A stretch of DNA of 64,000 nucleotides from Citricoccus sp. K5 (GTDB taxonomy: Bacteria; Actinomycetota; Actinomycetes; Actinomycetales; Micrococcaceae): contig NZ_LR732817.1 of assembly GCF_902506195.1 (NCBI RefSeq), forward strand, positions 2,757,407-2,821,406. Reading direction: 5' to 3'. Below are positions 41,827 to 51,291 of this stretch, in pieces. Under the pieces are notes generated by a model. The model ran no database searches, was not told the DNA's origin, and was given only the letters and a program-made list of their open reading frames with translations. Position 1 is the stretch's first letter; the number at the start of each line of letters is the position of its first letter. The position numbers were made by a program, and so were the translations under genes.

Positions 41827-42426
41827 ATGAGGGTGACTGAGATTGAACGAGACCCGCGGGGCGCCCCGGCCACCGAGCGGCTGAACTACACGGCCTACCG
41901 GCTGAGCCGGGCCCTGGACCGGTTCACCGAGAACCTGGCCCTGGCTCACGGGGTCACGCTGTCACAGTTCCTGATCCTCCAGGTCCTGGGCGAGGGCTTG
42001 CCCCTCTCCAACGCCCAGCTGGGACGGCGCACCTTCGTCAGCGCGCAAGCCGCCCACCTCGTGGCGAACGAGTTGATCGACCTCGGCCTCGTGGAACGCG
42101 GCAACCACCCAACGAACAGGCGGGTGCGCCTGGTCAGGCTGACCGAGAGAGGCTGGGACCTGGTGCAACGCTGTGGGCAGGAGCTGCAACGCCACGAGCG
42201 CCGGCTCACCGCTGCCATGGGCGAGGACCTCGGCAACTCGATCGTCGACGTCCTGGACCACGCGGCCCGCGAGCTCGCCGGTGGATACTTCGGGGATGAC
42301 GAGGCCGAGGCGGATGCCATCTCCCGCCGGCAGATCACCAGCCGTCCCCGGCATGTCCCCTCACGTCTGGCCGCGAACCGCCTGCGTTCCGCCGGCCGGG
42401 AGGCCCAGGCCGGACCCGCGGACTAG
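41827..42426 (+). CDS. MarR-family transcriptional regulator
   Basis: The protein has 199 residues. The winged helix is clear: TLSQFLILQVLGEGLPLSNAQLGRRTFVSAQAAHLVANELIDLGLVERGNHPTNRRVRLVRLTERG. The start may be ATG 41827 or GTG 41833; neither has a clear ribosome site. It ends 4 bases inside the convergent MFS gene, the last gene of the eight-gene operon. It could regulate that operon, the thioesterase, or the ligM/metF pair; sequence alone does not decide. Confidence 0.9.
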   Translation: MRVTEIERDPRGAPATERLNYTAYRLSRALDRFTENLALAHGVTLSQFLILQVLGEGLPLSNAQLGRRTFVSAQAAHLVANELIDLGLVERGNHPTNRRVRLVRLTERGWDLVQRCGQELQRHERRLTAAMGEDLGNSIVDVLDHAARELAGGYFGDDEAEADAISRRQITSRPRHVPSRLAANRLRSAGREAQAGPAD

Positions 42427-43646
42427 CCGCGTTCCGAGGGTGCCGTCCGGACCAGCACCAGCACCGTGCAGGCCAGTGCGCTCGCGGCGGCCACCGCCAG
42501 GGACACCCGCCCGGAACTGGCATCGATCAACCAGCCCATGAACACTGCGCCGAACGGCACCATCCCATAGCTGCCGAGGGTCATCCAGGACATCATGCGC
42601 CCGATGAACCGGGGGTCCACGGACTCCTGCGCCGCGGCGTTGACGATCCCCTGGTAATAGCCCACGCCCAGCCCCAGCAGCGGGGCGGCGCACAGAAAGA
42701 GCCCCAGGGTGGGGGCTGCCGCGTTCAGGGCCAGCACCACCCCGAACACCGCTGTCGCCGGAACCATCGCCCGGACGGAGACCTTGCGTTGCCGGGCCGC
42801 CAGGATCCCTCCCAGCACGGCACCCACGGCATTGAGCGTGTGCACTGCGCCAACAGCACTGGCGTCCCCGCCGTAACTCAGGTCCACTGTGGAGGTCAGC
42901 ACCAGCCCGAAGTTCATGGCCAGCAGGGACACCACCACGTTCACCACCAGCAGGGTGTTCACGTCCCTGCCGCGCCGGAACGGGACCCGGCCGCGCGGGC
43001 GGGCGCCGCCGTCGTGCTGCTCCCGCTGGTGCAGCTCCGCCGGGCGGATCATCCACCGGGAGCAGAAGACCACCAGGTACGCGCCGGAGTTGATGAGGAT
43101 GCACAGGGCCGCGCCGAGTCCCTGGAAGGCCAGGCCCGCGAGCGCCGGCCCGACGGAGCGGGCGGCCGCCAGGGCGATCGTGCTGATCGAGGCAGCACTG
43201 GACAGGCTCCCCGGGCCCACGAGTTCGAAGATGATCGCCTGCGCCGCGACGCGTTCGAAGGCCTGGACGGATCCGAGCACGCCGACCAGCCCGTAGACCA
43301 GCCATAAGTTCGGGTCCTCGGTCACCACCAGCGCCAGGGCGGCGGTGACCACGGCAGAGAGCAGCGAGGTCACCAGCAGCACGGTCCGCGCGGCCACCCG
43401 GTCCACCAGCCGGCCAGCGGCCAGCCCCAGCACGAAGATGGGCAGGAACTGCGCGATCGTGATGCCGCTCAGGGCCTGGGCACTGCCCGTGGCGTTGAGG
43501 ACGACCAGCTGCAGCGCCAGGTTCTGGAACCAGACTCCCGTGTTGGAGATGACCTGGCCGATGAAGTACAGCGAGAAGTTCCGCTGCCGGAACGGTCCGG
43601 CCGGTCCCGAGCCCTCGTCCGCGCCGGGTTCATCCGGTTCAGACAC
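42423..43646 (-). CDS. MFS transporter (DHA3/EntS-like)
   Basis: The protein has 407 residues and about twelve helices. It begins FRQRNFSLYFIGQVISNTGVWFQNLALQLVVL, the typical N-terminus of DHA3-type MFS permeases. GLAAGRLVDRVAARTVLL is the helix 2-3 motif. It is the last gene of the operon 42423-51291; its ATG overlaps the dehydratase-like gene by 8 bases. It may export a product or excess intermediate of the pathway. Confidence 0.9.
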   Translation of the reverse strand: MSEPDEPGADEGSGPAGPFRQRNFSLYFIGQVISNTGVWFQNLALQLVVLNATGSAQALSGITIAQFLPIFVLGLAAGRLVDRVAARTVLLVTSLLSAVVTAALALVVTEDPNLWLVYGLVGVLGSVQAFERVAAQAIIFELVGPGSLSSAASISTIALAAARSVGPALAGLAFQGLGAALCILINSGAYLVVFCSRWMIRPAELHQREQHDGGARPRGRVPFRRGRDVNTLLVVNVVVSLLAMNFGLVLTSTVDLSYGGDASAVGAVHTLNAVGAVLGGILAARQRKVSVRAMVPATAVFGVVLALNAAAPTLGLFLCAAPLLGLGVGYYQGIVNAAAQESVDPRFIGRMMSWMTLGSYGMVPFGAVFMGWLIDASSGRVSLAVAAASALACTVLVLVRTAPSERG

Positions 43647-49328: not shown

Positions 49329-50320
49329 TGGTTCTCCTGGTTCCGGATCTCCGCAGCGGCACCGGGCCGGCCGGCGTCGGGCACGGGGGTTGCGGTGGCC
49401 TTGGGCGCCGTACGCGTGGCCCCGCGGCTGTAGTAGTCCTCGACCTTGCGTTGGAAGAAGGTCAGGATGGTCACGGCCACGAGATACCAGATCACGGCCA
49501 CGATCAGCATGGGCACCACGTCATAGGTGCGGTTGTAGATGACTTGCACGGCGTGCAGCAGGTCCCCCATGGCGATGACGCTGACCAGCGAGGTGCCCTT
49601 GAGGGTGGCGATGACCTGGGAGCCGGTCGGCGGGATGATGACCCGCATGGCCTGCGGCAGCACGATCCGGGTGAAGGAGTGCCACCTGCTGAAGCCCATG
49701 GCCGCCGAGGCGTCATGCTGGCCCTGGTCCACCGAGAGGATGCCCGCCCGGATGATCTCCGCCATGTAGGCGGCCTCGTGCAGGGACAGGCCGATGATGG
49801 CCGCCGTCAACGGCGTGATGATGTCGTTCGTGGACCAGCTGAAGAACTCGGGCCCGAACGGCACCCCCACGGAGATCCGAGGGAGCAGGTAGGCGAGGTT
49901 GAACCAGAAGATCAGCTGGACCAGGGGCGGGACCCCGCGGAAGAAGCCCACGAAGGCCATGCAGGCCACGCGCACGGGCCAGTAGTCGCTGAGCTGGCCG
50001 GCGGCCAGGACGGTGCCCAACGCTGTGCCGAGCACCATGGCCACCACCATCAGCAGGACACTGGTCACCAGGCCGAGGAGCACGCTGGGGTTGAAGAGGT
50101 ACTCCGCGACGATGGGCCATTCGAACCGCTCGTTGGTGACGAGAAAGGATCCGATGCCCACGGCCACGAGGACCAGCACCACGGTGCCCAGGACGCGCAG
50201 CGGCCTGACCCGGGGGCGGGCCTGGGCCACGTCCACGGCGTCGGTGCGCACGGCGGGGGCGGACGGTGTGGAGGCTGTGGATGGTGCGGAGGGGGACATA
50301 GGGGTCTCCGATAGGGTCAT
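49325..50320 (-). CDS. Polar amino acid ABC transporter permease
   Basis: The protein has 331 residues. A Ser/Pro/Ala-rich tail of about 45 precedes the first helix; the permease core has LIFWFNLAYLLP and the coupling loop EIIRAGILSVDQGQHDASAAMGFSRWHSFTRIVLPQAMRVIIPP typical of HisM/GlnP-type subunits. The ATG at 50320 overlaps the binding-protein stop by 4 bases; the longer frame to 50425 translates the tandem repeats and is rejected. It is probably a homodimeric channel. Confidence 0.92.
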   Translation of the reverse strand: MTLSETPMSPSAPSTASTPSAPAVRTDAVDVAQARPRVRPLRVLGTVVLVLVAVGIGSFLVTNERFEWPIVAEYLFNPSVLLGLVTSVLLMVVAMVLGTALGTVLAAGQLSDYWPVRVACMAFVGFFRGVPPLVQLIFWFNLAYLLPRISVGVPFGPEFFSWSTNDIITPLTAAIIGLSLHEAAYMAEIIRAGILSVDQGQHDASAAMGFSRWHSFTRIVLPQAMRVIIPPTGSQVIATLKGTSLVSVIAMGDLLHAVQVIYNRTYDVVPMLIVAVIWYLVAVTILTFFQRKVEDYYSRGATRTAPKATATPVPDAGRPGAAAEIRNQENQ

Positions 50321-51291
50321 TCGCCGGACTCTTGCTCGGACTCTTGCTCGGACTCTTGCTCGGACTTTTGCTCGGTCATGGGGTTCAGGGTCGGAGCCTC
50401 CACCGTGACGTCGTCCAGCTCCCACTCGGACATGATCCGGTCATACTCACCGTTCTCGAAGATGCCCTCGAAAGCGGCCAGCATGGCCGGCGCGAGCTCG
50501 TTGTCCTTGGGGAGGAACATGGCGAGCTGGTCCACGCCGGCGCCCTGCTCGTCCGTCTGCACGAGGAAGTCGAAGGTGCCCTCGTCCTGGCTCTGGATGT
50601 CGAGGGCCGCAGTCTGGGTGGTGCCCGCGTAGTCCGCGCGGTCCGACTGGACGGCCAGGATGGTGGAGTTGGTGTCCTCCAGGCCGATGAACTCCGGGGC
50701 TTCGAGGCCCTCACCCTCGCACCACTCGGTGTAGCGCTCCAACTGGCTCTCGGTGACCGAGCCCGTGACGCCGGCGACCCGGGCGCCGCAGAGGTCCTCC
50801 GACTCGCCCAGCTCGTCCTGGCGTTCGCTGAGGTAGAGGTAGGAGGTCCGGGTGGTCATCCAGACCACGGCGTCGAAGTCCTCCTCCCGCTCGGCGGTGG
50901 TGCGGACCGGCCCGTTGAAGGCGTCGTAGCGGCCGGACAGCATGCCGGTCAGCATGGCATCCAGTCCCGATGAGGTCTGGATGGTGAACGGAACGCCCAG
51001 CTGCTCGGAGAGGGCCTCCTGGATGTCCGGGTCGATGCCGGTGATCTCGCCGCCCTCCTGCAGGGTGCGGTACGGCGGGTGGGTGTCACCGGCGATGGTG
51101 ATGCCCCCGGCGGACTTGATGTCCTCCGGCAGCAGGTCGTACGCCGGGGCCTCGGTGTTGACCCCACCGGCGGCGGTGGACGCGGAATCCTCGCCGGAGG
51201 ATTCGACGCCGGCGTCCGACGAGGAACAGGAGGCGAGGGCCAGCACGGTCAGACCAGCGAGGGCTGCAGTGCCGAGACGGCTGTACTTCAT
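50317..51291 (-). CDS. Family 3 amino acid ABC transporter substrate-binding lipoprotein
   Basis: The protein has 324 residues with lipobox ALASC (about residue 22). The mature domain has SAGGITIAGDTHPPYRTLQEGGEITGIDPDIQEALSEQLGVPF, the family-3 (GlnH/HisJ) start, and YDAFNGPVRTTAEREEDFDAV. The C-terminus ends in EQKSEQESEQESEQESGE, encoded by four 12-base repeats. It is the first gene of the eight-gene operon, with GGGAG upstream of ATG 51291. The ligand is probably an amino acid or a related 2-hydroxy/2-oxo acid. Confidence 0.92.
   Translation of the reverse strand: MKYSRLGTAALAGLTVLALASCSSSDAGVESSGEDSASTAAGGVNTEAPAYDLLPEDIKSAGGITIAGDTHPPYRTLQEGGEITGIDPDIQEALSEQLGVPFTIQTSSGLDAMLTGMLSGRYDAFNGPVRTTAEREEDFDAVVWMTTRTSYLYLSERQDELGESEDLCGARVAGVTGSVTESQLERYTEWCEGEGLEAPEFIGLEDTNSTILAVQSDRADYAGTTQTAALDIQSQDEGTFDFLVQTDEQGAGVDQLAMFLPKDNELAPAMLAAFEGIFENGEYDRIMSEWELDDVTVEAPTLNPMTEQKSEQESEQESEQESGE
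50326..50373. repeat. Four tandem 12-base repeats in the binding-protein C-terminus
   Basis: GGACTCTTGCTC occurs three times and GGACTTTTGCTC once, head to tail. On the coding strand they encode an EQES-like acidic tail. Such repeats vary in number by slippage; each change is in frame. Confidence 0.9.

What the first reader, a model, noticed from the sequence alone, without database searches (positions are those of the whole stretch)
42423..51291. Eight-gene overlapping operon resembling an anaerobic Had/Fld dehydratase pathway in an apparently aerobic actinobacterium
Seen: family-3 amino acid binding protein, permease, ATPase, CapA-like protein, class III CoA-transferase, two 2-hydroxyacyl-CoA-dehydratase-like proteins and an MFS transporter. 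Every junction overlaps by 4-8 bases. Known: CoA-transferase plus two dehydratase subunits is the core of hadABC/fldABC in Clostridium amino-acid fermentation. Inference: an imported amino or hydroxy acid is activated to a CoA ester and processed by an atypical dehydratase-like pair. No activator (HadI) and no 2-hydroxy-acid dehydrogenase is present.
Basis: partly seen in the sequence, partly recalled or inferred. Interest (0 to 1): 0.85.

Follow-up and report, generated by a model that had tools for sequence, protein, structure and literature searches.

The report
Iron-sulfur-free relatives of anaerobic dehydratases
An actinobacterium carries a conserved eight-gene cassette whose two key proteins look like oxygen-sensitive iron-sulfur enzymes of anaerobes but have lost the amino acids that hold the iron-sulfur clusters, so they probably do a different, still unknown, oxygen-tolerant reaction on a CoA-activated acid.

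Summary
In detail: eight co-directional genes (51291 to 42423, minus strand) of the named families, junctions overlapping by 4,4,4,4,4,4,8 bases. The cassette recurs in 19 named actinobacterial loci, with all eight genes in the same order in 10 of 17 untruncated ones; distant forms occur on alphaproteobacterial plasmids.

Best reading: a cluster-free, non-redox, oxygen-tolerant acyl-CoA enzyme in an aerobic CoA-dependent pathway; reaction and substrate unknown. A palindrome before the operon, with a weaker copy before the convergent MarR gene, suggests control by that MarR protein. New variant of a known kind.

The parts
50317..51291 (-). gene 1: family-3 solute-binding protein (324 aa)
   Evidence: PF00497 62.1 bits over cut-off; C22 invariant in 16 of 16 aligned sequences, read here as a lipobox cysteine (inference)
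49325..50320 (-). gene 2: amino-acid-type ABC permease (start ATG 50320 chosen; the longest ORF reaches 50425)
   Evidence: PF00528 80.3 bits; start choice
48456..49328 (-). gene 3: amino-acid-type ABC ATPase (290 aa)
   Evidence: PF00005 121.7 bits; best NCBIfam TcyN and EhuA, below their cut-offs
47305..48459 (-). gene 4: CapA/PGA_cap protein, MslH-like (384 aa)
   Evidence: PF09587 170 bits; nearest solved sequence MslH 8gq9
46067..47308 (-). gene 5: family III CoA-transferase (413 aa), D155 conserved
   Evidence: PF02515 356.4 bits; D155 invariant in 22 of 22 aligned
44919..46070 (-). gene 6, 'HgdS': beta-like HGD-D subunit without the canonical cluster ligands (383 aa)
   Evidence: PF06050 64.9 bits; BzdN/HadC by profile and fold; ligand columns
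43639..44922 (-). gene 7, 'HgdL': alpha-like HGD-D subunit without the canonical cluster ligands (427 aa, one Cys)
   Evidence: PF06050 117.3 bits; BzdO/MbdO/HadB by profile and fold; ligand columns
42423..43646 (-). gene 8: MFS transporter (407 aa)
   Evidence: PF07690 112.7 bits
41827..42426 (+). convergent MarR-family regulator (199 aa); stops of MarR and gene 8 overlap by 4 bases
   Evidence: PF12802 53 bits; homologues at 10 further cassette loci by clustering
51342..51362 (.). palindrome AATATCA-N7-TGATATT beginning about 70 bp before gene 1: predicted MarR operator
   Evidence: only exact place in the genome, control pattern 0; exact in 7 of 18 loci scanned
41803..41823 (.). weaker copy (3 mismatches) ending three bases before the MarR start codon
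   Evidence: 2 matches in the window at up to 3 mismatches against 0.07 expected
39665..41224 (-). neighbour, membership unsure: LigM-type vanillate/3-O-methylgallate O-demethylase
   Evidence: NF047885 871 bits, cut-off 580

Best explanation
The cassette takes up an organic acid (binding protein, permease, ATPase), processes it with a CapA-type protein, loads it onto CoA with a family III CoA-transferase, and hands the thioester to a HgdS/HgdL heterodimer. The heterodimer descends from the benzoyl-CoA-reductase/2-hydroxyacyl-CoA-dehydratase family but carries no [4Fe-4S] cluster and needs no ATP-driven activator. HgdL keeps the thioester pocket and probably does a non-redox, oxygen-tolerant conversion (lyase, hydratase or isomerase type); HgdS has lost the electron-relay role and is a faster-evolving partner. 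The MFS protein exports a product or excess substrate. A MarR protein (PaaX in other lineages) controls the operon. Shown by computation: fold, pairing, ligand loss, conserved tyrosines, operon and its conservation. Inferred: heterodimer in this species, CoA-thioester substrate, reaction type, order of steps, operator function. Unknown: substrate.
Against: No substrate, product or reaction is shown. Sphingomonad HgdL (2 of 30 rows) keeps Cys at ligands 1 and 2 and has 10 Cys in all, and 9 of 26 HgdS keep Cys at ligand 2, so part of the clade might still bind a cluster or metal. Asp-ligated clusters cannot be excluded by sequence. PF01869 proteins occur in 11 of 13 carrier genomes examined (10 over the cut-off): two in G001 belong to a separate canonical set, G742 has one at 197.7 bits, the rest score 117.6 or less; their kind was not resolved. 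HgdS's higher dN/dS could also mean decay. The ligand-1 column of HgdS is poorly aligned in the fused and sphingomonad proteins.
Confidence: 0.6

Rival explanations
1. A working radical 2-hydroxyacyl-CoA dehydratase of the Had/Fld type that borrows an activator and holds an unusual cluster.
For: Fold and subunit pairing are those of HadBC/BzdNO; CoA-transferase next door as in hadABC/fldABC (recalled). PF01869 proteins exist in 11 of 13 carrier genomes.
Against: Cluster ligands replaced; one Cys in the whole window HgdL; Glu65 column is Gln; no PF01869 protein in this genome or in G002, another carrier; COX1 present.
Confidence: 0.06
2. The emptied cluster sites hold another cofactor: Asp68, Ser/Cys95 and Asp330 of HgdS (or Asp135 and Asp379 of HgdL) bind a divalent metal that does Lewis-acid chemistry on the thioester.
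For: The replacements are mostly Asp: D330 in 26 of 26, D68 in 21 of 26, D135 in 29 of 30, D379 in 28 of 30.
Against: No coordinates were at hand to see whether the residues meet; column 95 is S, C, D, P or A; such Asp can be structural.
Confidence: 0.25
3. A catalytically dead pair that senses, stores or channels the CoA ester.
For: Loss of cluster ligands and of the acid Glu; HgdS evolves faster.
Against: HgdL is about as constrained as the CoA-transferase (dN/dS 0.065 against 0.061, and 0.103 against 0.135), with 127 invariant positions in 20 sequences.
Confidence: 0.15
4. The operon is mainly a detoxification or export unit ending in the MFS pump.
For: NCBIfam matches of the MFS protein include drug-efflux models, all far below their cut-offs; MarR gene.
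Against: An uptake system stands in front; no MFS match in 4 of 17 untruncated loci and moved in 2; no PADLOC match for the 5 proteins scanned.
Confidence: 0.12

Closest known systems
BzdNO, class I benzoyl-CoA reductase (PDB 8s02; PMC11971306)
   Same: Both subunits match in profile and fold; the thioester tyrosines Tyr97 and Tyr298 are kept.
   Different: Cluster ligands replaced, Glu65 is Gln (29 of 30), Gln274 is mostly Arg (27 of 30), no activator gene in this genome.
HadBC / FldBC 2-hydroxyacyl-CoA dehydratases with HadA/FldA and HadI/FldI (PDB 3o3m)
   Same: CoA-transferase plus two dehydratase-like subunits; top VIA match of HgdL is HadB.
   Different: No [4Fe-4S] ligands, no activator here, CapA and a dedicated importer in the operon.
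Double-cubane cluster protein DCCP (6eno, 7yyl)
   Same: Fold; partial NF040772 matches far below cut-off.
   Different: Cluster ligands and reductase partner absent.
MslH lasso-peptide epimerase (8gq9; PMC10406935)
   Same: Nearest solved sequence to the CapA protein; E46, N86, H208 align with metal ligands Glu44, Asn87, His259, and H87/D90 and H243 with catalytic His88/Asp91 and His295.
   Different: His261 aligns with Gly210; 81.8 bits against the family's cut-off of 700.

Membership tests
BCR/HAD (HGD-D, PF06050) superfamily | HGD-D fold in both subunits | tested here: met
BCR/HAD (HGD-D, PF06050) superfamily | two unlike adjacent subunits, one alpha-like and one beta-like | tested here: met
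   profiles to BzdO/MbdO/HadB and to BzdN/MbdN/HadC; fused in L035 and L036
Radical 2-hydroxyacyl-CoA dehydratase (Had/Fld) or class I benzoyl-CoA reductase | three Cys ligands of the alpha-subunit [4Fe-4S] cluster | tested here: not met
   Cys in 2, 2 and 0 of 30 cassette rows at ligands 1, 2, 3; the 5 references have all three (ligand 2 in one of two neighbouring columns)
Radical 2-hydroxyacyl-CoA dehydratase (Had/Fld) or class I benzoyl-CoA reductase | Cys ligands of the beta-subunit cluster shared by BzdN and HadC | tested here: not met
   Cys in 0, 9 and 0 of 26 rows; 5 of 5 references at each
Radical 2-hydroxyacyl-CoA dehydratase (Had/Fld) or class I benzoyl-CoA reductase | ATP-dependent activator (PF01869) | tested here: not met
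   0 matches in the own genome; in other carriers PF01869 matches exist (11 of 13 genomes), kind not resolved
Radical 2-hydroxyacyl-CoA dehydratase (Had/Fld) or class I benzoyl-CoA reductase | acid residue equivalent to BzdO Glu65 | tested here: not met
   Gln in 29 of 30, Thr in 1; Glu in the 4 references that cover the column; searches align two of these Glu with BzdO residue 65
Acyl-CoA binding as in BzdO | tyrosines on the thioester oxygen (Tyr97, Tyr298) | tested here: met
   Tyr in 30 of 30 at both; roles from PMC11971306 section 9
Family III CoA-transferase | CoA_transf_3 domain with the conserved Asp | tested here: met
   356.4 bits; D155 invariant in 22 of 22 and aligned with Asp of 4ed9 and YfdE; its catalytic role is recalled
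FldA / HadA specific CoA-transferase | specificity for 2-hydroxy or cinnamic acids | not testable with these tools
   best NCBIfam matches are succinyl-CoA:mesaconate and succinate-glutarate transferases, below cut-off
MslH epimerase | metal ligands and two catalytic dyads | tested here: inconclusive
   three of four metal ligands kept, His261 aligns with Gly210; His88/Asp91 and His295 kept; Asp11 lies outside the printed alignment, D16 is a guess from the GD motif

The most novel reading that the evidence does not exclude
A whole branch of the benzoyl-CoA-reductase/2-hydroxyacyl-CoA-dehydratase family, spread over several actinobacterial orders and into alphaproteobacteria, has shed both iron-sulfur clusters and its ATP-driven activator and has become an oxygen-tolerant acyl-CoA enzyme with new chemistry in the emptied cluster pocket (perhaps with a carboxylate-bound metal), at the heart of an undescribed aerobic CoA-dependent pathway.
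Probability: 0.45. Interest if true: 0.82.

Novelty: new variant of a known kind. Interest (0 to 1): 0.62.

Why it matters
PMC11971306 (discussion passages) describes the family as a series in which sub-clusters are lost (double cubanes, then single cubanes) and new functions appear. The cassette proteins would be the end of that series: the scaffold with no Fe-S cluster at all, in an organism with an aerobic terminal oxidase gene. Sphingomonad forms that keep two ligand cysteines would be intermediates. It is a tractable system for asking how a radical enzyme becomes a non-radical one, and a warning against reading '2-hydroxyacyl-CoA dehydratase family protein' genes of aerobes as fermentation enzymes.

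Tried and rejected
Had/Fld pathway: rejected as mechanism (ligands, Glu, activator), kept as ancestry.

Defence system: no PADLOC match for the five proteins scanned of eight.

Near copy of the cassette on plasmids: a megablast of the 9.4-kb region gave 161 records, none covering 80% of the query; the 20 rows listed cover at most 6% of it, under ABC-transporter genes where annotated. The tblastn of HgdL gave the alphaproteobacterial relatives.

LigM as part of the system: it lies within 10 kb in the window, L011, L031, L016 and L020 (named by NCBIfam in window, L016 and L020 only). But LigM over its cut-off occurs in 24 of 99 relatives, among them four Citricoccus genomes without a HgdL match (G003, G004, G006, G007), and in carrier G038 it is on another contig. 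Weak; I draw no substrate from it.

Substrate guesses considered and not adopted: rosmarinate/phenyllactate-type esters, betaines, lignin acids. None was tested.

Literature: (open-licence PMC only). Judged by titles and abstract starts, nothing listed describes a cluster-free member or this cassette; one search listed 12 of 826 papers and 15 of 44. Of PMC11971306 I saw passages and sections 7 and 9, of PMC10406935 passages; all other papers as listings. Not proof of absence.

Rows left out: HgdS of L019 (frame broken), L021 (contig ends), L029 (under my script's 100-bit limit), L047 and L031; HgdL of L031. Conservation counts leave out L019 everywhere, L026 for the CoA-transferase and L017 for CapA. 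The fused proteins were cut by eye (HgdL half from residue 331 or 381, HgdS half to 340 or 400). In one search MAFFT sets the start of the BzdO fragment one column off; fix residue 65.
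Full report
What is there. The window lies in a 3.88-Mb genome whose nearest named HgdL locus is Citricoccus zhacaiensis at 96%. Eight minus-strand genes run from 51291 to 42423. The seven junctions overlap by 4,4,4,4,4,4 and 8 bases, taking ATG 50320 as the permease start. I call the HGD-D proteins HgdS (383 aa) and HgdL (427 aa). They are the only PF06050 matches of the genome; it has no PF01869 activator and has COX1.

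It is a conserved unit. A scan of the genome collection with HgdL gave 19 loci of 11 genera: Citricoccus, Arthrobacter, Agromyces, Frigoribacterium, Microbacterium, Nesterenkonia, Klenkia, Nocardia, Rhodococcus, Georgenia and Salinibacterium. L021 and L026 lie on short contigs. Of the other 17, ten carry all eight genes in the same order, three all eight rearranged (L018, L027, L028), three lack only MFS (L016, L017, L019) and one (L029) shows only CoA-transferase, HgdS and HgdL of the set. It is rare: 6 of 198 relatives, 3 of 396 genomes drawn from the phylum and 7 of 394 from the class, each count with the own genome; the last holds one weak hit, G702, whose pair is of the canonical kind. 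In two distant actinobacterial genomes HgdS and HgdL lie in one open frame (766 and 810 aa), which supports a heterodimer.

Regulation. A MarR gene (41827-42426, plus strand) converges on the operon, stops overlapping by 4 bases; homologues lie at ten further loci by clustering. A palindrome AATATCA-N7-TGATATT begins about 70 bp before gene 1. It is exact in 7 of 18 loci scanned (window, L011-L015, L031; six of these seven have the MarR homologue called, L013 does not). L016-L018 show degenerate copies by eye. The scan found none in L019 and L020, nor in the six Nocardiaceae and Salinibacterium loci. In the own genome the exact form occurs at one place, control 0. The window holds one more copy with three mismatches, ending three bases before the MarR start, 2 matches against 0.07 expected. 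MarR control and autoregulation are likely; binding is not shown. PaaX-type regulators lie at other loci: Pfam was run on those of L021, L028 and L035; those of L019, L023-L025 and L027 rest on clustering, those of L043-L045 on tblastn.

But the clusters cannot be held as in the family. PMC11971306 (passages) names BzdO Cys95, Cys128 and Cys380 as ligands of the catalytic [4Fe-4S]-OH2 cluster and BzdN Cys36/73/100/263/293/327 for the double cubane. I aligned 30 cassette HgdL and 26 HgdS with five references each: three pairs with cluster cysteines (L030, L048, L052; activator genes beside the first and third, the contig of L048 ends) and fragments of MbdO and BzdO, or BzdN and HadC. HgdL: ligand 1 is Cys in 2 of 30, ligand 2 in 2 of 30, ligand 3 in 0 of 30; the two are the sphingomonad proteins of L049 and L051. 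Neighbouring columns read D135 (29 of 30) and D379 (28 of 30). HgdS: Cys in 0, 9 and 0 of 26; the columns read Asp68 (21 of 26), Ser or Cys95 (22 of 26) and Asp330 (26 of 26). References have Cys in 5 of 5, ligand 2 of the alpha subunit in one of two neighbouring columns. The window HgdL has one Cys in all, the window HgdS five, none of them invariant. The column of BzdO Glu65 is Gln in 29 of 30 and Glu in the four references that cover it; searches align two of those Glu with residue 65. These are sequence inferences; no coordinates were at hand.

What is kept. Tyr97 and Tyr298 of BzdO hydrogen-bond the thioester oxygen; both columns are Tyr in 30 of 30. HgdL forms one side of a branch against the references (SH-aLRT 99; quick tree, long reference branches, so unsure in detail). 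dN/dS against L011 and L012 is 0.065 and 0.103 for HgdL, 0.061 and 0.135 for the CoA-transferase, 0.333 and 0.404 for HgdS. So HgdL looks like the working subunit; HgdS, whose relatives relay electrons, looks relaxed. CapA keeps three of four MslH metal ligands; the CoA-transferase Asp155 is invariant in 22 of 22.

Other forms. Plasmids of Novosphingobium, Croceicoccus and a Rhizobium encode full-length HgdL relatives at 36-39% identity (7 of the 10 records). The regions read of Novosphingobium ES2-1 and C. marinus have CocE hydrolase, CapA, TRAP transporter, a Pfam-less protein (Pfam run on the first only) that I read as HgdS from its place and alignment (tblastn with HgdS did not find it), CoA-transferases and HgdL, with tannase/feruloyl esterase (the first) or hydroxycinnamoyl-CoA hydratase/lyase (the second) nearby. 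Nocardia L022 has an S15/CocE-like protein, clustered with L024 and L025. The Rhizobium SSA_523 region has two CoA-transferases, an enolase-superfamily protein and a PrpD-like protein. Importers vary: amino-acid type, spermidine/iron-type binding proteins, TRAP, and by sequence look only a peptide type in L046 and L047. CoA-transferase and HgdL recur (no CoA-transferase match was seen in L036 or on the short contig L021), which argues for an acid substrate, perhaps freed from esters; this is inference.

Verdict. The operon is real and its gene families are right. It should not be called a Had/Fld pathway: the cluster ligands were tested and are missing, and so is the activator in this genome. 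It works, most likely, as an aerobic CoA-ester pathway around a cluster-free member of the BCR/HAD family. Reaction and substrate are unknown. Results against: cysteines kept in part of the clade, PF01869 proteins in 11 of 13 carrier genomes, and the weak LigM link.

Noticed in passing
L030 (G001:C3:136001-156000), 4508-8163 and 11681-16439: The sister Citricoccus genome G001 carries two inverted copies of a canonical HGD-D pair with BcrAD_BadFG activator and PaaX genes, with what looks like an acyl-CoA synthetase between them (by sequence only): a benzoyl-CoA-reductase-like set in a Citricoccus. Cluster cysteines were checked in one copy. L048 (G702) has a similar pair.
   Followed up: partly
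L049 13971-15272, L051 13971-15272: Sphingomonad HgdL proteins keep Cys at cluster-ligand positions 1 and 2 (in CxxC and CxC) but not 3, and have 10 Cys in all: possible evolutionary intermediates.
   Followed up: partly
L035 8651-10951; L036 34-2466: HgdS and HgdL in one open frame in two distant actinobacterial genomes; a cytochrome P450 gene near by in L035 (Pfam), others by sequence look only.
   Followed up: partly
window 32181-39361: Separate minus-strand cluster: FmdA/AmdA acetamidase, amidase fused to an AtzH-like domain, NMT1-type ABC transporter and a GntR/FCD regulator.
   Followed up: no
L019 4015-10251: In Nesterenkonia pannonica the binding-protein, permease, CapA, CoA-transferase and HgdS matches are split into pieces: decay or sequencing errors.
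   Followed up: no
G000:C1:256856-258196 (outside the window): A LigM-like match has one in-frame TAG in the own genome; LigM-like matches with one TAG also occur in the carriers G001 and G002.
   Followed up: no
window 51754-53415: YeiH-type putative sulfate exporter (146.4 bits, below the 232.6 cut-off) upstream of the operon, clustered only with the two other Citricoccus loci.
   Followed up: no
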